Assembly (NCBI RefSeq): GCF_000348685.1
Contig: NZ_ANLA01000004.1
Coordinates: forward strand, 620,001 to 684,000
Length of the DNA: 64,000 nucleotides
Source: Xanthomarina gelatinilytica
GTDB taxonomy: Bacteria > Bacteroidota > Bacteroidia > Flavobacteriales > Flavobacteriaceae
Direction: 5' to 3'
The notes beneath the pieces are model-generated. The model was not told the origin of the DNA. It saw nothing but the letters and a program-made list of their open reading frames with translations, and did no database searches. The translations under genes and the position numbers were made by a program. Position 1 is the stretch's first letter. Every line of letters begins with the position of its first letter. Below, in pieces: positions 13,013 to 20,856 of the stretch.

Positions 13013-14470
13013 TTAAATCTTCTTACGCAACCTGGCTACTGGAATATCCAATTGCTCTCTGTATTTGGCAACCGTTCTTCTGGCTATAGGATAGCCCTTT
13101 TCCTTTAAAATTTTAGCTAAGGCATCGTCCGTTAAAGGCTTTTTCTTGTTTTCCTCCTCGATAACCGTTTCCAGGATTTTTTTAATCTCCCTGGTGGAAA
13201 CCTCTTCGCCTTGATCGTTGGTCATTGATTCCGAAAAGAACTCCTTTATCAGTTTGGTGCCATAAGGTGTGTCTACATATTTACTATTGGCCACTCTGGA
13301 AACGGTGGACACATCCATGTCTATTTCGTCTGCAATGTCTTTTAGGATCATAGGTCTTAACTTGCGCTCATCGCCTGTTAAAAAATATTCTTTTTGATAG
13401 TGCATAATGGCACTCATGGTAACAAATAACGTCTGCTGACGTTGCTTTATGGCATCTATAAACCACTTGGCAGCATCCAGTTTTTGCTTGATAAACATGA
13501 CAGCATCTTTCTGCGATTTCGATTTGTCCTTAGACTCTTTGTAACCCTTCAGCATGTTGTTGTATTCCCTGGATACATGAAGTTCTGGCGCATTTCTACC
13601 GTTAAGGGTTAGTTCAAGCTCACCATCTACAATTTTAATGGCAAAATCTGGCACAACATGTTCCACTATGCGGTTGTTTCCGGAATAGGAGCCGCCAGGT
13701 TTGGGGTTTAAATGTTCTATCTCGTCTATGGCATCTTTAAGTTGCTGTTCGGTAACGTCAAACTTTTGAAGCAGTTTCTTGTAGTGCTTTTTGGTAAACA
13801 TCTCAAACGCATTGTCTATAATATCAATGGCCAACTCCACATCTGGACGTTTCTCCTTTCTATGCAATTGAATGCTTAAACACTCCTGAAGGTTTCTGGC
13901 TCCAACACCAGCAGGATCCAATTGATGGACTATTTTCAAGACTTTTTCTATTTCATCTTCAGTGGTATAAATGTTTTGGGTAAAAGCCAAATCGTCCATA
14001 ATATCAGGTAAGGAACGACGGATATAACCACTTTCATCAATACTGCCTACAAGGAATTCGGCAATATCAAACTCATCATCGGTAAGCCTAAAGGTATTTA
14101 ATTGGTTGATTAAATGTTGCGTAAAAGAGGTTCCAGCAGCATAAGGCATGGTTTTTTCTTCATCATCACTACTGTAGTTATTGGCTTGGGTTCTATAATC
14201 AGGGACATCGTCGTCGCTTAAATAGTCGTCCACGTTAATGTCGTCTGCATTTATAGAGTCATTGTCATCGTCATAATCGTTGCTATTATCAAAATCGTCA
14301 TCGTATTCATCCAATGGTTCTTTACCACTTTCCAAAGCTGGATTCTCCTCCAACTCTTGTTTCAAGCGTTGCTCAAAGGCTTGCGTGGGCAATTGTATCA
14401 ACTTCATCAATTGGATTTGCTGAGGTGATAACTTTTGTGATAATTTAAATTGTAAATATTGTTTAAGCAT
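13013..14470 (-). CDS. rpoN: RNA polymerase sigma-54 factor
   Basis: 485 residues. The N-terminal activator-interaction region is present (QFKLSQKLSPQQIQLMKLIQ and LEENPALE), followed by a strongly acidic linker of Asp and Asn residues at about 50-95. The core-binding domain includes the LDPAGVGARNLQECL motif near 190. The DNA-binding part includes ADEIDMDVSTVSRVANSKYVDTPYG near 375-400 and the RpoN box ARRTVAKYRE at about 460-469. RpoN directs polymerase to -24/-12 promoters and needs an AAA+ activator, none of which is encoded here. It is transcribed towards the PAP2-like gene. asnS lies in the same direction about 5 kb upstream, beyond the accessory island. Confidence 0.97.
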   Translation of the reverse strand: MLKQYLQFKLSQKLSPQQIQLMKLIQLPTQAFEQRLKQELEENPALESGKEPLDEYDDDFDNSNDYDDDNDSINADDINVDDYLSDDDVPDYRTQANNYSSDDEEKTMPYAAGTSFTQHLINQLNTFRLTDDEFDIAEFLVGSIDESGYIRRSLPDIMDDLAFTQNIYTTEDEIEKVLKIVHQLDPAGVGARNLQECLSIQLHRKEKRPDVELAIDIIDNAFEMFTKKHYKKLLQKFDVTEQQLKDAIDEIEHLNPKPGGSYSGNNRIVEHVVPDFAIKIVDGELELTLNGRNAPELHVSREYNNMLKGYKESKDKSKSQKDAVMFIKQKLDAAKWFIDAIKQRQQTLFVTMSAIMHYQKEYFLTGDERKLRPMILKDIADEIDMDVSTVSRVANSKYVDTPYGTKLIKEFFSESMTNDQGEEVSTREIKKILETVIEEENKKKPLTDDALAKILKEKGYPIARRTVAKYREQLDIPVARLRKKI

Positions 14471-14624
14471 TGTTTGGGTTTACTATAAAAATAAAAAAAA
14501 CAATCTATATTTTTTAATTAACGAAGATAGTTTTTACTTCAAACATTCTCTAACTATTAGATGTTTTTTGTAAATTTATAAACTACTCTTTAAGGTTATA
14601 GTTAATAGTCCCTAAAATAATCTT

Positions 14625-15518
14625 ATGAAAAAAGTATTACAAATCATATTATTCTTTGCTTTTTTAAATATTTATGCTCAAGAAATAAAGGAGTATAGAA
14701 TTTTAAGTGTTGTAGATTCTATGCCAATTGAAAATGCATATATCACAGCTGATAATTGGCTGAAAACAATTACAGACAAGAAAGGATTTTTCAAGCTTTC
14801 AGGAGATTATCAAAATATTCAAATTAGTCATCTTGCGTTTAAGGCCAAAATTGTTAAATATAAAACAATGGTTATAAATAAAATAACATATCTCGAAGCA
14901 GATGAGAAGGTCTTAAATGAAGTTATAATAACTAATAAAAAAAAGATAAAAACACTTCTTCCAAGCAATGATTATAAATTTTTTAAAAGGGATAGTTATA
15001 TGGTAAACCAGAATTCTGTTTATACAACCTTTATACCTAATGAAATAGAAAATACATGTTTCATTAATAAAATTATTATAGAGGTTGGTGATAATATGAA
15101 CTCATCAAAGCTATATAATATCCCTTTTAGAGTAAATCTATACACTGTTAATAATAATACAGGGCTACCCGATAAAAAAATATTAGATGAAAGCATATTA
15201 ACATCTCAAAATAAAAATAGAAAAAACAATTTTATTTATGTTGATATTAGAGATTTTGATATTGAATTTCCCAAAGAAGGCATTTTCGTTGCTGTTGAAA
15301 GTTTAAATTTATTAGAACTTGAAGAAATGAAAACATTAAGTGGTCAATTACCCTCATTTAAAGCAATCAAGAATAAAAATAAATATGTAACATATAGTAG
15401 GATTTATTCATGGGATAGATTAACTAAGACAAAGGATACAATTTATAAAGATTGGATTGATAAAATTCTTCCTTTACCAAAATTTGTTTTCAATTTCGGA
15501 ATTGAAGTACAATATTAA
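14625..15518 (+). CDS. Secreted protein with carboxypeptidase-like regulatory domain
   Basis: 297 residues with a signal peptide (MKKVLQIILFFAFLNIYAQ). Residues about 22-100 look like a carboxypeptidase-D regulatory-like beta-sandwich: EYRILSVVDSMPIENAYITA, ITDKKGFFKLSG and IQISHLAFKAKIVK, then LEADEKVLNEVIITNKKK. That last segment is the join usually seen before a TonB plug or barrel. No barrel follows. The remaining 170 residues contain VNLYTVNNNTGLPDKKIL and show no family I know. Base composition is clearly AT-richer than the flanking rpoN and asnS genes. As the first gene of the accessory island it may belong with the peptide system, but that is inferred from position. Confidence 0.7.
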   Translation: MKKVLQIILFFAFLNIYAQEIKEYRILSVVDSMPIENAYITADNWLKTITDKKGFFKLSGDYQNIQISHLAFKAKIVKYKTMVINKITYLEADEKVLNEVIITNKKKIKTLLPSNDYKFFKRDSYMVNQNSVYTTFIPNEIENTCFINKIIIEVGDNMNSSKLYNIPFRVNLYTVNNNTGLPDKKILDESILTSQNKNRKNNFIYVDIRDFDIEFPKEGIFVAVESLNLLELEEMKTLSGQLPSFKAIKNKNKYVTYSRIYSWDRLTKTKDTIYKDWIDKILPLPKFVFNFGIEVQY

Positions 15519-15826
15519 TTTTTATTAGTATGAATTTTCACTTTTCATTTATATTAATTTATATGCAATAAATTTTACACAAGTGTTATTAATTACTAAG
15601 AGAGAGTATCCTAAAGAGTATAATAGAAGTGATTTGTTGTATTTTATATAAAAACTTTCTGAAACAGTTTTAAAAAATAAGATTAATAAAGTGCAAATAC
15701 CTGAAAAACAAAATATATAAGTTTTAAACAGTAAATGTATTAAATAAAATTCTCTTGCAAGGAGTAGACATAAACTGTAAGTGTCTTTAAGTGTTTGCAG
15801 CAATTAATTTCATTAAACTTATAATT
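15519..15826. other. AT-rich intergenic region before the leader-peptide gene
   Basis: Very AT-rich. Stops occur in all plus-strand frames. The one minus-strand open frame of 84 codons has low-complexity hydrophobic composition and no ribosome-binding or family signal, so I do not call it. The region presumably holds the promoter of the peptide gene, but no clean TTTG-N19-TAnnTTTG pair is visible. Confidence 0.5.
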
Positions 15827-15967
15827 ATGAAAAACATATTAAATTTAGGAGTGCCCTTAACCAAAGAGGCGCAAAAGTCAATATTGGGTGGCAATCCAGA
15901 ATTAGTTTGTCTCGTTGAATTTTGTTGGATCAATGGTCAACCGGCTTTATGCGAAGTATGTGAATAG
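15827..15967 (+). CDS. Double-glycine leader peptide precursor (bacteriocin-like), 46 residues
   Basis: A short gene missed by length cut-offs. ATG at 15827, stop TAG at 15965-15967. The leader begins MKNILNLGVP and ends LTKEAQKSILGG, with Gly-Gly at residues 21-22. This fits the Bacteroidota double-glycine leader pattern that C39 peptidase-exporters cleave. The predicted 24-residue product has four cysteines (residues 28, 33, 42, 45; spacing C-x4-C-x8-C-x2-C), one Trp, four Glu and no Lys or Arg, so it is acidic and unlike typical cationic bacteriocins. A strong terminator follows ten bases after the stop. The MG2/TonB-plug gene and a truncated C39 exporter lie downstream. The product's activity is unknown. 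Confidence 0.8.
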   Translation: MKNILNLGVPLTKEAQKSILGGNPELVCLVEFCWINGQPALCEVCE

Positions 15968-15976
15968 CGTTATTTA

Positions 15977-16005
15977 TACAGAGAGAAAATCTATTTCTCT
16001 CTGTA
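15977..16005 (+). terminator. Hairpin terminator/attenuator after the leader-peptide gene
   Basis: A perfect 12-bp stem (TACAGAGAGAAA with TTTCTCTCTGTA) around the loop ATCTA, followed by TTTTT. It separates the peptide gene from the large downstream gene, which suggests most transcripts stop here so the peptide is made in excess. Confidence 0.85.
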
Positions 16006-16031
16006 TTTTTAAATTTTATAAACAATTTAAA

Positions 16032-18416
16032 ATGAACAAGTTACTTATTTTATTGTTGTTATTGTCAAATTATGTTTTTTCACAAAGCGAAAATCAATAT
16101 AGTGAAACGGTATTTGAAAACAAAGACTATTTCCACGAATTTCAACAAGAAAAATTCTTTTTACACACCAACAAAACCACCTATTTTACAGGCGAAACCA
16201 TTTGGTGGAAAGCCTATGTAGTAAGCGATTTTAGCGATAAACCCATAACCAATACTACCAATTTATATGTTAATTTTTACGATGCAAACAAAAAATTAAT
16301 ATCACAGCAATTATTTTATTGTGAGAACGGAAAAGCTTATGGCGAAATAGAGTTACCTAGTACTTTAGACACTGGAGAATATTATATAAATCTGGCCACA
16401 CAATGGAATAAAAACTTTAAGAACAAATACACGGTTCCCATTTACATCATTAATTCTAAAACAAGTAATCCTTTAGATGAAGACCTTAAAGTAAATATAG
16501 TGGATGCAATAGATATCGCTTTCTATCCAGAAAGTGGAAGCTTACTTAATAATACGACAAACACAATTTATTTAACCTTACAAAATAATGATGTCTTTTT
16601 AGCTGAACAGGCAGTAGCAATAACAGACAACACCACTAATAAAGCTATAGCCAATATTAAGACCAATAAACTTGGTCACGCAAAATTTAACTTGCTTTAT
16701 CAAGCAAGTAATAATTATACGGCAACGGTAAAATATGAAGATAGCACATACACAAAGCAATTACCGAAAACATTAAACTCTGGTGTCCTTATTCATAAAA
16801 AAGAGAATTTGAATACTAAAACAAGTCAAGATTTTACTATTGAATTTAGTAAAGAGATGTTAGCTCAATATAACGAAAGCACCATTTTTGCAACTGTACA
16901 TAGAAATCAAAAGTTACTTTATATTTTACCCTTTAAAGTGAATAAAAAACACAAGAAATATGTGATACCTATAGAGACCGAAAACCTTTTTAATGGATTT
17001 AATATCATAACCTTATTTAATGAAAAAAACCACCCTATTTCAGAACGTCCTTTTTATGTAGAAACCAAGCAAAATATAGAGATAGAGACTATTAAAAATG
17101 ATACAACAAAAGATTCTATAACCATTGATTTTCAATTAAAAAATAGTTATACAAGTACCAATTTGAGTATTTCGGTCTTGCCAAAAGATACAAAGCTTAA
17201 TGAAAATTCAAGTAACATCATAGATGCTTTTTTACTAAAACCTTATCTAAAAACCAATATCCATTCTGCCAACCATTTAGCCGATGTCGATTTAGACATG
17301 CTGTTGCAAACACAAACAAAACAGACAGTAAAACATACTTTTAATAAGCAACCACCCATTTACCTACAAACAAGAGGTTTAAGCATCAAAGGACGAATTA
17401 ATACGGAATTTAAGAAAAATTATAAAGTACTACTAACCTCAACAGAAAATGAAATCATAGAGGTTACTGATATCAATCCCGATAAATCCTTTGTATTTCC
17501 AAATTTAATAATGAGGGATAGTTCAAATTATAAACTAGCAGTATTAGATGAAAAAGGAGTTATAGTAAAAGCTGGAATTTATGTATATAAACAAATCGAA
17601 AATTATAAGTCAGACAGTTTGCTCGTTTATAATAAAAATCAGTTTCTAACAACTAAAGAAATAGTAAAAGAAGAAATGTTTATCGATTATATCGATACTA
17701 AAGATTCTGAAATACTTGATGAGGTATTGCTAATGGGTAAAAAGCGAAAAGAAATACAAATGGATGAACTTTATCCAAACACACTAAATGAATTAGGTAA
17801 CGGCTTTACACAAAAACTTCAGTTTGATGAGGTAGATGAAATGAATAATACAGTCATACAATATTTGAATAATCAATCTGGAGTTGTTGCTGTCGAAAGA
17901 CCAATGGGTGCCAGTATTATAATAACAAGGACAACATTTGATTCATTTTATGATAGTACTGAAGCTTTAATCCTTTTAAATGGAGTTCCTACTGATGCAG
18001 AATCTGTAGCATATTTACCATTAAGTGAAGTTGAATCAATAAAAATAAACGCAAGTGGCGCAGGTTATGGAACGCGAGGGAGCAATGGAGTGATTTTTAT
18101 AGATCTTAAGAAAGGTGGTGAAAATTATAAAACAACACCAAATTTAAATTATTATACCAGCTCTACAGATTTTGGTTTTATAACGTCTAGACCAACTTTT
18201 GTAGCCTCACAACTTATTTTTAATTCATCAGCAACAAGTCAATTTTATGAAACTCTTGATTGGATTCCTAATTTTAATATATTACCAAATAAATCAAATA
18301 CTTTAAAAATTTATAAAGGCGAACATGAAAACATCAAATTGTTCATCAATGGGATGAATAATGATGGTCAGTTATTTTGTAAAGTTGTTGATTTACCTAT
18401 TAAAAAGGGATTATAA
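16032..18416 (+). CDS. MG2-like and TonB-plug domain protein
   Basis: 794 residues. The chosen ATG at 16032 starts a good signal peptide (MNKLLILLLLLSNYVFSQ). The frame is open further upstream but overlaps the peptide gene. Residues about 30-145 are an MG2-like macroglobulin domain (FFLHTNKTTYFTGETIWWKA), and more beta-sandwich modules follow. Near residue 570 LDEVLLMGKKRKE marks the start of the plug region. Residues about 610-700 are a TonB-receptor plug (ILLNGVPTDAESV, EVESIKINASGAGYGTRGSN, GVIFIDLKKGG) with no beta-barrel after it. Such proteins occur in Bacteroidota without a known job. Its position between the leader-peptide gene and the exporter remnant links it to that system. Confidence 0.85.
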   Translation: MNKLLILLLLLSNYVFSQSENQYSETVFENKDYFHEFQQEKFFLHTNKTTYFTGETIWWKAYVVSDFSDKPITNTTNLYVNFYDANKKLISQQLFYCENGKAYGEIELPSTLDTGEYYINLATQWNKNFKNKYTVPIYIINSKTSNPLDEDLKVNIVDAIDIAFYPESGSLLNNTTNTIYLTLQNNDVFLAEQAVAITDNTTNKAIANIKTNKLGHAKFNLLYQASNNYTATVKYEDSTYTKQLPKTLNSGVLIHKKENLNTKTSQDFTIEFSKEMLAQYNESTIFATVHRNQKLLYILPFKVNKKHKKYVIPIETENLFNGFNIITLFNEKNHPISERPFYVETKQNIEIETIKNDTTKDSITIDFQLKNSYTSTNLSISVLPKDTKLNENSSNIIDAFLLKPYLKTNIHSANHLADVDLDMLLQTQTKQTVKHTFNKQPPIYLQTRGLSIKGRINTEFKKNYKVLLTSTENEIIEVTDINPDKSFVFPNLIMRDSSNYKLAVLDEKGVIVKAGIYVYKQIENYKSDSLLVYNKNQFLTTKEIVKEEMFIDYIDTKDSEILDEVLLMGKKRKEIQMDELYPNTLNELGNGFTQKLQFDEVDEMNNTVIQYLNNQSGVVAVERPMGASIIITRTTFDSFYDSTEALILLNGVPTDAESVAYLPLSEVESIKINASGAGYGTRGSNGVIFIDLKKGGENYKTTPNLNYYTSSTDFGFITSRPTFVASQLIFNSSATSQFYETLDWIPNFNILPNKSNTLKIYKGEHENIKLFINGMNNDGQLFCKVVDLPIKKGL

Positions 18417-18445
18417 ATTAACAGGTTTTCCTCCAAAAACAACTA

Positions 18446-19204
18446 ATGAAGAGTTTCCCGTTTTACAAACAACGAGATCATAAAGACTGTGGACCTACCT
18501 GTTTAAGAATAGTTTCTAAGCATTATAAAAAAAATATAAATACACAACAGCTACGTGAGCTAAGTGAGACCACTAGAGTTGGAAGTAGTTTATTAGGTTT
18601 AAGTGAAGCCTCAGAAAAACTAGGATTTAGAAGTTTGGGGATAAAAGTTGATTTAGATAAGTTACAGGATGCTCCTTTACCCTGTATTCTACATTGGAAT
18701 AAAAATCATTATGTGGTTCTTTATAAAATAAAAAAAGAAGTGTTTTATATTTCAGACCCTGGGCATGGTTTATTAAAATATAGCAAAGAAGATTTTTTAA
18801 AACACTGGATAGGGAATAATGCTACAGACCAAACCGAAGAAGGTATTGCCTTATTATTAGAGCCTACGCCAAAATTTTATAATTCAGATTTTGATACAGA
18901 AAAACAAGAATTTGGCTTTAAATTCTTGTCAAAATATATATTTAAATATAAACAGTTTTTATGGCAATTAGTGATCGGTCTTATTGCTGCCAGTTTATTA
19001 CAGCTTATTTTTCCGTTCTTAACCCAAAGTGTGGTAGATGTTGGTATCAAAAACCAAGACATTCATTTTATTTACTTGATTCTATTTGCACAATTAGCCC
19101 TGTTTGTTGGTAGAACAGCCATTGAAGTTATAAGAAGTTGGATCTTATTGCATTTAAGCACGAGGATTAATATTTCTCTAGTTTCAGATTTCTTTATTAC
19201 ATAA
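18446..19204 (+). pseudogene. Truncated C39-peptidase ABC exporter (peptidase domain plus first membrane helices)
   Basis: 252 residues, where complete peptidase-containing ABC transporters have about 700-730. The C39 domain (residues 1-135) is intact: KQRDHKDCGPTCLRIVSKHY carries the oxyanion Gln and catalytic Cys15, HWNKNHYVVLYK has the His, and DPGHG has the Asp. Two to three transmembrane helices follow (FLWQLVIGLIAASLLQLIFPFL, FIYLILFAQLALFVG). The reading then stops in mid-helical domain after SLVSDFFI, and nothing resembling the rest of the membrane domain or the ATPase follows in any frame. It is called a pseudogene, although the peptidase part could still be made. It would process the double-glycine leader upstream. 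Confidence 0.85.
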
Positions 19205-19335
19205 CTGTTTGGGAAGAAACAATTTCAAGATCATTTCCTAGATTGTTTGTTAAGAAATCTGGATCTAAAAAGGAAAAGTAAATGATATCTTTAACATCGC
19301 TATTTGTTATATCAAAACTATAGTTTAAATAAGAA
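19203..19335 (-). pseudogene. Possible C-terminal gene remnant at the exporter breakpoint
   Basis: On the minus strand a short open frame reads NYSFDITNSDVKDIIYFSF and LDPDFLTNNLGNDLEIVSSQ. It looks like ordinary protein sequence rather than random translation, and ends exactly where the exporter reading on the plus strand breaks off. It has no start or domain, so it may be the tail of another gene joined to the exporter by deletion. I cannot name it, and it could be chance. Confidence 0.3.
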
Positions 19336-19367
19336 AAACCCCAATGGGGATGCGTTCTTCGCTTACA

Positions 19368-19422
19368 TCTCGACTGCACTCAATGTAACACTCTATATTA
19401 TGGTAACTGAGCCTAGTCGAAG
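19368..19422. repeat. Imperfect palindromic intergenic repeat (TGAGC-x-TAGTCGAAG type)
   Basis: A left arm beginning TCTCGACTGCACTCAATG and a right arm GTAACTGAGCCTAGTCGAAG are imperfect reverse complements across an AT-rich loop. The right arm directly abuts the asnS stop codon. The core CTGAGC-x2-AGTCGAAG recurs at 40155-40170. I recognise it as a type of palindrome scattered between genes in flavobacterial genomes. On the minus strand it could also help end asnS transcription. Confidence 0.7.
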
Positions 19423-20856
19423 TTAAAACTCAGCATTTTGAGGTGTTCTAGGAAACGGAATCACGTCGCGAATATTACCCATGCCTGTGGCGAACATCAC
19501 CAAGCGTTCGAAACCTAAACCAAACCCAGAATGTACAGCCGTTCCGTATTTACGTAAATCCAGATACCACCATAATTCTTCTTCGTCTATGTCCAGAGCT
19601 TTCATTTTTTCTTTAAGCACGTCCAAACGTTCTTCACGTTGCGAGCCTCCAACCATTTCGCCAATGCCTGGAAATAAAATATCCATGGCGCGAACCGTTT
19701 TGCCATCTTCGTTTAAACGCATGTAAAAGGCTTTGATGTTGGCAGGATAATCAAACAAAATAACCGGACAGTTAAAGTGTTTTTCCACCAAATAACGTTC
19801 GTGCTCACTTTGTAAATCGGCTCCCCATTCCTCAATAAGATATTTGAATTTTTTCTTCTTGTTTGGTTTGCTGTTTTTAAGGATGTCTATGGCTTCGGTA
19901 TAGCTTACACGTTTAAAATTGTTGTCCACCACGAACTTAATTTTTTCAATCAAGCTCATCTCGCTACGCTCGGCTTGGGGTTTGGTTTTTTCTTCTTCCA
20001 ACAAACGGTTTTCAAGAAATTCCAAATCTTCACGATTGTGTTTTAAAATATAGCTTAAAACCGATTTCATGAAATCTTCGGCTAGATCCATATTTCCAGC
20101 CAAGTCCATAAAAGCCACTTCTGGTTCTATCATCCAGAATTCTGCTAAATGTCTAGAGGTATTCGAGTTTTCGGCTCTAAAAGTAGGTCCAAAGGTGTAC
20201 ACTTTCCCTAAGGACATGGCATAGGTTTCAGCCTCTAATTGTCCGGAAACGGTTAAATTGGTTTCTTTGCCAAAAAAATCTTCTTTAAAATTGACGTTTC
20301 CAGCCTCGTCCAATGGTGGGTTTTTGGCATCCAAATTGGTCACACGGAACATTTCCCCAGCACCTTCAGCATCACTACCAGTTATAATTGGTGTGTGCAT
20401 ATAATAAAACCCATTCTCGTTAAAATATTTATGAATGGCAAAAGACAGGGCAGAACGCAAACGCATCACAGCACTAAAGGTACTGGTTCTGGTGCGTAAA
20501 TGGGCGTTTTCCCTTAAAAACTCAAAAGAGTGTTTTTTAGGTTGAATAGGAAAACTTTCAGGATCTGAATCCCCTAATATGTCAATGGAACTTACTTGTA
20601 TTTCAACACGCTGTCCTTTACCTTGACTTTCTGTCAACGCTCCTTTAATATGAACAGCAGCTCCGGTTGTGATTCTTTTTAACAGAGCTTCGTCGGTGTT
20701 TTCAAAATCTACAACACATTGAATGTTATGTATGGTAGAACCATCGTTTAAGGCAATAAATCGGTTGGCTCTAAAGGTTCTAACCCAACCTTTTACTTCA
20801 ACATCCTGTAAGGTGTTTTCCTTGGAAAGTAAGTTTGCAATGGTACTTGATATCAT
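19423..20856 (-). CDS. asnS: Asparagine--tRNA ligase
   Basis: 477 residues, class IIb aminoacyl-tRNA synthetase charging tRNA-Asn in the cytoplasm. The N-terminal OB-fold anticodon domain covers about residues 15-100 (VEVKGWVRTFRANRFIALNDGS). Class II motif 2 appears as FGPTFRAENSNTSRHLAEFWMIEPE near residues 215-240, and motif 3 as GFGLGFERLVMFATGMGNIRDVIPFPRTP at the C-terminus. The short C-terminus ending in PQNAEF is usual for AsnRS. A -7 box TATCTTTG lies about 20 bases before the ATG. A palindromic repeat follows the stop directly. Confidence 0.98.
   Translation of the reverse strand: MISSTIANLLSKENTLQDVEVKGWVRTFRANRFIALNDGSTIHNIQCVVDFENTDEALLKRITTGAAVHIKGALTESQGKGQRVEIQVSSIDILGDSDPESFPIQPKKHSFEFLRENAHLRTRTSTFSAVMRLRSALSFAIHKYFNENGFYYMHTPIITGSDAEGAGEMFRVTNLDAKNPPLDEAGNVNFKEDFFGKETNLTVSGQLEAETYAMSLGKVYTFGPTFRAENSNTSRHLAEFWMIEPEVAFMDLAGNMDLAEDFMKSVLSYILKHNREDLEFLENRLLEEEKTKPQAERSEMSLIEKIKFVVDNNFKRVSYTEAIDILKNSKPNKKKKFKYLIEEWGADLQSEHERYLVEKHFNCPVILFDYPANIKAFYMRLNEDGKTVRAMDILFPGIGEMVGGSQREERLDVLKEKMKALDIDEEELWWYLDLRKYGTAVHSGFGLGFERLVMFATGMGNIRDVIPFPRTPQNAEF

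What the first reader, a model, noticed from the sequence alone, without database searches (positions are those of the whole stretch)
14625..19422. Accessory island with a secreted-peptide system inserted between rpoN and asnS
An AT-rich block holds a carboxypeptidase-regulatory-domain protein, a double-glycine leader peptide, an MG2/TonB-plug protein and a C39-peptidase exporter, all on the plus strand. Flanking rpoN and asnS are on the minus strand, and I recall them as neighbours in other flavobacteria. The combination of a processed peptide with an MG2/TonB-plug partner has no assigned function that I know. It could be a toxin, a signal or a metal-binding peptide system.
Basis: partly seen in the sequence, partly recalled or inferred. 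Interest (0 to 1): 0.75.

Follow-up and report, generated by a model that had tools for sequence, protein, structure and literature searches.

The report
Pseudoknot RNA heading secreted-peptide genes
The flagged DNA block is the broken remnant of a bacterial peptide-secretion gene cluster, but the small peptide gene left in it carries, just in front of its start, a folded RNA that recurs before cysteine-rich peptide genes of the same type in related bacteria and that we did not find in the RNA family database searched.

Summary
Confirmed: a 4.9-kb AT-rich block (14511-19422) sits between rpoN and asnS, which are neighbours without it in 33 of 36 relatives, including all 7 congeners held. Corrected: it is a decayed cluster. 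The exporter stops at residue 251 of about 730, no HlyD gene lies in the window, and a VKOR oxidoreductase is reduced to about 38 C-terminal residues with a stop. A terminator separates the peptide from the MG2/plug gene, and MG2 relatives do not accompany such clusters (0 of 22 loci with C39 peptidase, VKOR or HlyD). L150 is an intact relative.

Unexpected: a ~60-nt element (15742-15812) heads the peptide gene. Sequence-only and structure models find it across the family: at least 145 hits in 49 of 397 genomes. In the loci examined 98 of 113 hits precede a double-glycine-leader ORF (random positions 64 of 2260). Three helices covary, including a pseudoknot (92.8% of cells paired; 0 of 500 shuffles reach this); 66 held-out sites agree. 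No Rfam match.

Best reading: a new cis-acting structured RNA controlling secreted Cys-rich peptide genes, surviving here on an orphaned member. Signal and mode are unknown.

The parts
13013..14470 (-). rpoN (sigma-54), left neighbour
   Evidence: NCBIfam TIGR02395 E 1e-121
14496..14510 (.). left arm of the hairpin found between asnS and rpoN in relatives; insertion edge
   Evidence: blastn of the interval against 15 relatives, alignment ends here
14511..19422 (.). inserted AT-rich block
   Evidence: absent from 33 of 36 relatives; edges
14625..15518 (+). CPR: 297-aa protein with weak carboxypeptidase-regulatory-like domain; relatives beside double-glycine peptides in L150, L151 and L099
15562..15675 (+). 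remnant (about 38 codons, one in-frame stop) of the C-terminus of a VKOR-domain protein
   Evidence: tblastx to L084, L085, L089 E 2e-5 to 2e-4; those ORFs are VKOR relatives
15742..15812 (+). structured RNA element: P1 15750-15755/15760-15764, P2 15766-15771/15781-15786, pseudoknot P3 15775-15780/15795-15800
   Evidence: R2 69.4 bits; helices counted
15827..15967 (+). double-glycine peptide precursor, 46 aa; leader 22 aa (15827-15892), core 24 aa with 4 Cys
15976..16006 (+). intrinsic-terminator-like hairpin after the peptide gene
   Evidence: 13 bp stem, z -6.7; pattern scan
16032..18416 (+). MG2/TonB-plug protein, 794 aa; 70% identical relative in G003 outside any rpoN-asnS interval
18446..19204 (+). 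truncated C39 peptidase/ABC exporter (residues 1-251 of about 730)
19198..19422 (.). segment of unknown origin; asnS-side hairpin 19338-19351 (minus strand)
   Evidence: no Pfam match at E<=10, no second copy in the genome, hairpin
19423..20856 (-). asnS, right neighbour
   Evidence: NCBIfam PRK03932 E 9e-198

Best explanation
The block is an acquired, partly deleted cluster for a secreted Cys-rich double-glycine peptide (bacteriocin-like or signal). What looks intact is a one-gene unit: a structured 5' leader RNA, the 46-aa precursor and a terminator. The leader RNA belongs to a family of about 60 nt: hairpin P1 with a CGCG loop, then an H-type pseudoknot (P2 GACAY.../...RTGTC, loop AAA, P3 CYKTGA/TCAMRG, joining strand TTTAAATGT), then usually 25-31 nt of AU-rich sequence before the ATG. 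I propose that it acts in cis on its own mRNA and controls translation initiation or decay of each peptide gene, with a metabolite, ion or RNA-binding protein stabilising the pseudoknot just outside the initiating ribosome. Shown: conservation, covariation, position, link to the peptides, decay of the cluster here. Inferred: that it acts as RNA (base-pair bias only), the translational level, any ligand, and past horizontal transfer.
For: Unsupervised covariation on rows aligned by a sequence-only model: the five top-ranked column pairs are all P2 or P3 pairs (scores 42-57; largest of 20 column shuffles 15.2); 11 of the 18 pairs above 15.2 are helix pairs. MAFFT alignment of 111: 92.8% of cells paired against 82.0% shuffled and 38-56% slid; covariation 0.403 against 0.203; 0 of 500 shuffles reach it. 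G-U exceeds A-C 137 to 53, and 86 to 13 in P2+P3, as expected if the coding strand folds as RNA. 98 of 113 hits precede an ORF with a GG leader, random positions 64 of 2260; P3-to-ATG distance 25-31 nt in 90 of 96 measured. Held out: of 66 sites not in the alignment 62 precede a GG leader, and P3 forms at 86% of positions against 23-56% when slid. Hit L084:10864, also not in the alignment, has a different P3 sequence that still pairs and precedes a GG peptide. In 63 loci (1.25 Mb; MG2-, C39- and CPR-centred plus the window) all 9 hits lie at such genes, one of them decayed. Cores: 98 distinct, median 6 Cys, 91 with at least 4. Of 60 element loci VKOR is in 34, C39 peptidase in 27, HlyD in 24. 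Decay here. Intact relative L150.
Against: Folding of five single sequences is weak (z -0.6 to -1.1), though that program ignores pseudoknots. P1 is less well paired (85.8%) and has two registers (80.9% in the other); its A-C count (40) is near its G-U count (51). Seven non-helix column pairs also exceed the shuffle maximum (two are one-column neighbours of P3 pairs), so relatedness contributes to the signal. No expression or binding data, and no conserved alternative pairing was seen, so no switch is evident. Of 18 C39-centred loci (L080, L082-L098) only L084 and L086 have the element, so it is not needed for export; 20 of 60 element loci show no C39, VKOR or HlyD within the 10-19 kb fetched. 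In the phylum-wide draw only 11 of 395 genomes have it.
Confidence: 0.78

Rival explanations
1. The element works as DNA: an operator or promoter region, or a folded single-stranded recombination site that lets peptide cassettes be shuffled.
For: Multi-copy, always in front of a short variable cassette; arrays with several copies (L202, L203). Palindromic TCGCGA in P1.
Against: Covarying pseudoknot and strand-specific G-U over A-C bias; tight spacing to the ATG; no conserved promoter-like positions in the 75 nt upstream; 44 of 111 sites have a same-strand ORF of at least 45 aa ending within 60 nt upstream, which leaves little room for a promoter (those ORFs were not checked as genes).
Confidence: 0.12
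2. A structured leader, but read by a protein or small RNA, or acting as an mRNA stabiliser or standby site, and not a ligand-binding riboswitch.
For: Small, near the ribosome site, no expression platform seen; many copies per genome suit a common regulator.
Against: None specific; conserved unpaired positions in the loop and joining strand would fit a pocket as well.
Confidence: 0.45
3. The leader is conserved only by descent: peptide genes are copied and transferred together with their upstream DNA, with no function of the structure.
For: Leaders and elements are both conserved while cores differ; related sequences inflate covariation, and 7 non-helix pairs exceed the shuffle maximum.
Against: Compensatory changes (238 cells against 82.6 shuffled; slid versions 19-55) and the held-out sites.
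Confidence: 0.05
4. The locus is still a working secretion system: the peptide leaves by another exporter, and the short C39 protein or the MG2 protein has a role in it.
For: Peptide ORF, element pairing and CPR and MG2 reading frames are intact.
Against: No other C39 domain of this type in the genome; terminator before MG2; no MG2 association elsewhere.
Confidence: 0.12

Closest known systems
Bacteroidetocins (PMC6671954; passages read)
   Same: small double-glycine peptide with a peptidase-bearing ABC transporter and a thiol oxidoreductase in one gene region
   Different: Bacteroidales and functional; four-gene region with a TM protein; the cluster here is decayed and has a CPR protein. In the passages found no leader RNA is described ('untranslated' 0 occurrences).
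Curated precursor models of Bacteroidetes: NF047798 leader_Chryseo, NF047792 CCPGW, TIGR04149, PF14406
   Same: same style of leader; 5 of the 10 distinct element-linked peptides scanned show matches below the cut-off to one of these models
   Different: the window peptide matches no model at E<=0.1; the models describe the peptide, not an upstream RNA
Small H-type pseudoknot riboswitches (SAM-II, SAM-V, preQ1; recalled, for SAM-V the abstract start was seen)
   Same: compact pseudoknot near the ribosome site with a conserved joining strand
   Different: no Rfam match; additional P1 hairpin; linked to secreted peptides; no ligand known

Membership tests
Double-glycine (C39-processed) secreted peptide | leader ending in GG with a hydrophobic residue two before it, and a short core | tested here: met
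   15827-15967; found by the same pattern as 98 of 113 element-linked ORFs
Double-glycine (C39-processed) secreted peptide | complete C39 ABC exporter available | tested here: not met
   exporter ends at residue 251; no other C39 match in the draft genome
Bacteriocin | kills competitors, has immunity | not testable with these tools
   no assay; no immunity gene was identified or searched for
Curated Bacteroidetes precursor models (Pfam, NCBIfam) | score above curated cut-off | tested here: not met
   window peptide: 0 families at E<=0.1 in both libraries
Structured cis-regulatory RNA (general kind) | compensatory covariation supporting helices | tested here: met
Structured cis-regulatory RNA (general kind) | fixed position upstream of one functional class of genes | tested here: met
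Structured cis-regulatory RNA (general kind) | changes expression of the downstream gene | not testable with these tools
   no expression data
Riboswitch | direct ligand binding | not testable with these tools
   only a hint: conserved unpaired positions
Any family of Rfam 15 | match at gathering score | tested here: not met
   0 matches in 10 loci that carry hits; at E<=10 only matches far below gathering score for window 14400-19500 and L232 4990-5190

The most novel reading that the evidence does not exclude
The element is an orphan riboswitch class: a pseudoknotted sensor RNA that turns a whole arsenal of secreted Cys-rich peptides (up to a dozen or more copies per genome) on or off in flavobacteria in answer to one unknown signal, an RNA layer of control over peptide warfare or signalling.
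Probability: 0.3. Interest if true: 0.9.

Novelty: new variant of a known kind. Interest (0 to 1): 0.8.

Why it matters
Double-glycine peptides of Bacteroidota are poorly understood, and how they are regulated is, as far as my nine paper searches went, not described. A conserved leader RNA would mark these genes in genomes whatever their core sequence, so that hypervariable peptides can be found by the RNA; it points to one common signal for many peptides in one cell; and it is small enough for quick structure and ligand work. If it binds a ligand it is a new riboswitch class with an unusual target, secreted peptides. The island itself is ordinary: an accessory cluster in decay.

Tried and rejected
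MG2/plug protein as partner: rejected (neighbourhoods read). A named genome scan with the CPR protein found no relative. CPR is a true but rare companion: of the five best CPR matches outside the window (G167, G122, G069, G035, G062) I read four neighbourhoods; three (L150, L151, L099) have a double-glycine peptide beside CPR, one of them decayed, and L152 (G069) showed none by the leader pattern. Rfam at low thresholds gave only unrelated weak matches. Single-sequence folding was uninformative. P1 in the other register scores slightly lower. A uORF starting at the NTG in the joining strand was considered from the alignment and dropped, because the distance to the ATG varies by single bases; not tested further. 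A promoter upstream of the element: no conserved positions. Virus contigs: 0 exact matches of the core pattern. The 225-bp tail of the block has no assignable origin. In-order failures: script stopped on an off-by-one check and was rerun corrected.

Limits: R1 was built from five sequences that all came from CPR-neighbour loci, but it holds no coding sequence. The 60 stretches were picked by me from the listed hits, mostly the stronger ones; weaker and unlisted hits were not examined. Of the 15 hits of 113 without the strict GG pattern, five have near-GG variants, two precede cluster-type genes (a VKOR relative; a CPR-like ORF judged by eye), two have GG leaders in frame without an ATG, three precede degenerate peptides, one has a GG peptide further downstream, and L240:6972 and L248 fit neither (2+5+2+3+1+2 = 15). 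The held-out sites come partly from the same or related species, and the search pattern fixed P2 and the 5' arm of P3, not the 3' arm. Shuffle and slide controls do not model phylogeny fully. In some searches only 12 candidates per genome were scored, so copy numbers are lower bounds. The search for HlyD and VKOR covered the window only, not the rest of the genome. The paper 'Detection of 224 candidate structured RNAs' (title recalled) was not read; one search listed only papers that name it.
Full report
What is in the block. Four plus-strand ORFs lie at the places named: CPR (14625-15518), peptide (15827-15967), MG2/plug (16032-18416) and a C39 peptidase ORF (18446-19204). Pfam and NCBIfam support the C39 assignment strongly (E 2.3e-37) and the CPR and MG2 assignments only below their cut-offs. 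The flanks are rpoN and asnS, both on the minus strand.

It is an insertion. I searched the two flanking proteins in 36 relatives. In 33 the two genes are neighbours (32 with 48-297 bp between the matches; G006 has an N-run and was read directly in L067), including all 7 congeners. G024 carries an unrelated 3-kb insert in the same interval, G030 has the genes apart and G023 has them on different contigs. Comparison with 15 intervals puts the left edge at about 14510, inside a hairpin conserved in relatives, and the right edge at the asnS stop codon. No C39 exporter match was found in the 7 congeners, and the closest MG2 relative (70%, G003) lies on another contig than that genome's rpoN and asnS.

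It is decayed. The exporter ORF matches relatives only over residues 1-251; the ten best relatives have open frames of 731-756 aa. DNA similarity to the exporter gene of L150 stops at 19197 and no further part of it, nor of HlyD, is in the window. The genome, a draft of 47 contigs, has no other match to this C39 domain; I did not search it for HlyD or VKOR. Between CPR and the peptide, 15562-15675 reads as the C-terminus of a VKOR-domain protein with an in-frame stop (tblastx E 2e-5 to 2e-4; identity of those proteins). An intact relative, L150, shows the likely parent: VKOR protein, double-glycine peptide, thioredoxin-like protein, second peptide, CPR (50% identical), C39 exporter (78% over the first 251 residues) and HlyD, in that order on one strand. 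Two more relatives are also decayed: L151 has HlyD fragments, a frameshifted peptide and CPR; L099 has a 38-residue C39 match, a peptide and CPR.

MG2 is not part of it. Of 22 MG2-centred loci none has the C39 peptidase, VKOR or HlyD; of 60 element loci none has MG2. MG2 relatives sit as single or tandem genes beside housekeeping genes. In the window a 13-bp hairpin followed by U's separates peptide and MG2 (z -6.7).

The unexpected part. Comparing the spacer upstream of the peptide with the other CPR loci showed a strikingly similar stretch (79% over 72 bp to L099) also present before both peptides of L150 and the decayed peptide of L151. I built a model of sequence alone from these five and searched 397 genomes of the family: 96 had hits at E<=0.1, where about 40 would be expected by chance at that threshold, but many hits were far stronger. 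I fetched 60 stretches picked from the listed hits and searched these plus 18 other sources: 113 hits. 98 of 113 are followed within 110 nt by an ATG ORF with a [ILVM]xGG leader; random positions give 64 of 2260. The 15 others are listed in Tried and rejected. The distance from the end of P3 to the ATG is 25-31 nt in 90 of 96. The 98 cores are all different, with a median of 6 Cys; 91 have at least 4.

Structure. RNAalifold on the model alignment already pointed to a covarying stem. A covariation scan without any structure input put P2 and P3 pairs in the first five places, far above column shuffles; 11 of 18 pairs above the shuffle maximum are helix pairs and 7 are not, two of these being one-column neighbours of P3 pairs. 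On an independent MAFFT alignment of 111 sequences the structure P1+P2+P3 has 92.8% of cells paired (shuffles 82.0, slid 38-56), 238 cells changed on both sides (shuffles 82.6) and covariation 0.403 (shuffles 0.203), with 0 of 500 shuffles reaching any of these. P3 is a pseudoknot: loop CYKTGA pairs with TCAMRG downstream. In the window it is CTGTAA with TTGCAG. G-U pairs exceed A-C 86 to 13 in P2 and P3, but only 51 to 40 in P1. P1 is therefore the least certain helix, with two registers.

Held-out tests. A pattern that fixed P2 and the 5' arm of P3, but not its 3' arm, found 72 stretches in named genomes: mainly Tenacibaculum, also Bizionia, Lacinutrix, Winogradskyella, Polaribacter, Lutibacter, Mangrovimonas, Psychroserpens, Snuella, Ulvibacterium, Gaetbulibacter, Pontimicrobium, Aquaticitalea and two Roseivirga bins. 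Of 92 distinct sites 82, and of 66 not in the alignment 62, precede a GG leader; P3 forms at 86% of positions in the 66, against 23-56% when slid. A structure model (P1, P2 only) found 9 hits in 63 control and reference loci, all at such peptide genes, among them a new one, L084:10864, with a different P3 that still pairs, before a GG peptide. In the family it has at least 145 hits in 49 of 397 genomes at E<=0.001 (42 of 237 genera), up to 12 per genome with 12 candidates scored; the window's genome has one. A phylum draw gave 11 of 395 at E<=0.01, ten of the same family and one of another family of the class, which also precedes a GG peptide. Of the G genomes, G035 is probably Mangrovimonas spongiae, since contig lengths agree (944,624).

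Known or new. Rfam 15 has no match at gathering score in 10 loci with hits, and only weak unrelated ones otherwise. Nine paper searches turned up no description of an RNA or upstream element for such genes; I read passages of PMC6671954, PMC2864571, PMC6429828 and PMC10043782 and only listings of the rest. The library holds open-licence papers only, so a description elsewhere is possible.

How it may work. The element lies in the place of a 5' leader, close to many upstream ORFs (44 of 111 within 60 nt), with no promoter-like conservation before it and an AU-rich stretch to the ATG after it. A pseudoknot at this distance would sit at the edge of an initiating ribosome, so control of initiation or of mRNA decay is the likeliest role; conserved unpaired positions in the loop and joining strand would allow a ligand pocket. 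Which of these holds is not shown.

Noticed in passing
L073 (G024:C2:272500-276100): The same rpoN-asnS interval holds an unrelated 3-kb insert with four minus-strand genes, one reading like an ABC transporter ATPase, so the interval has taken up DNA at least twice in the relatives searched.
   Followed up: partly
L077 3938-5614 and 7820-10210 (G003): The closest relative of the window's MG2 protein (70%) lies about 2 kb from a TPR/AraC-type regulator related to the one beside double-glycine peptides in L150.
   Followed up: no
L078 (G000:C19): The window's genome has a second MG2/plug protein (38%) beside clpB-like and pheT-like genes, an arrangement shared with other congeners.
   Followed up: partly
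L151 8600-9966: A cluster in another state of decay: HlyD fragments, a frameshifted double-glycine peptide with its RNA element, and an intact CPR gene.
   Followed up: partly
L202, L203, L217: Several element-headed peptide genes with different Cys-rich cores stand in one locus, an arsenal-like array.
   Followed up: no
window 19338-19351: The hairpin after asnS in relatives is cut by the insertion; a CCCC/GGGG hairpin with a U-run on the minus strand may now serve as asnS terminator.
   Followed up: no
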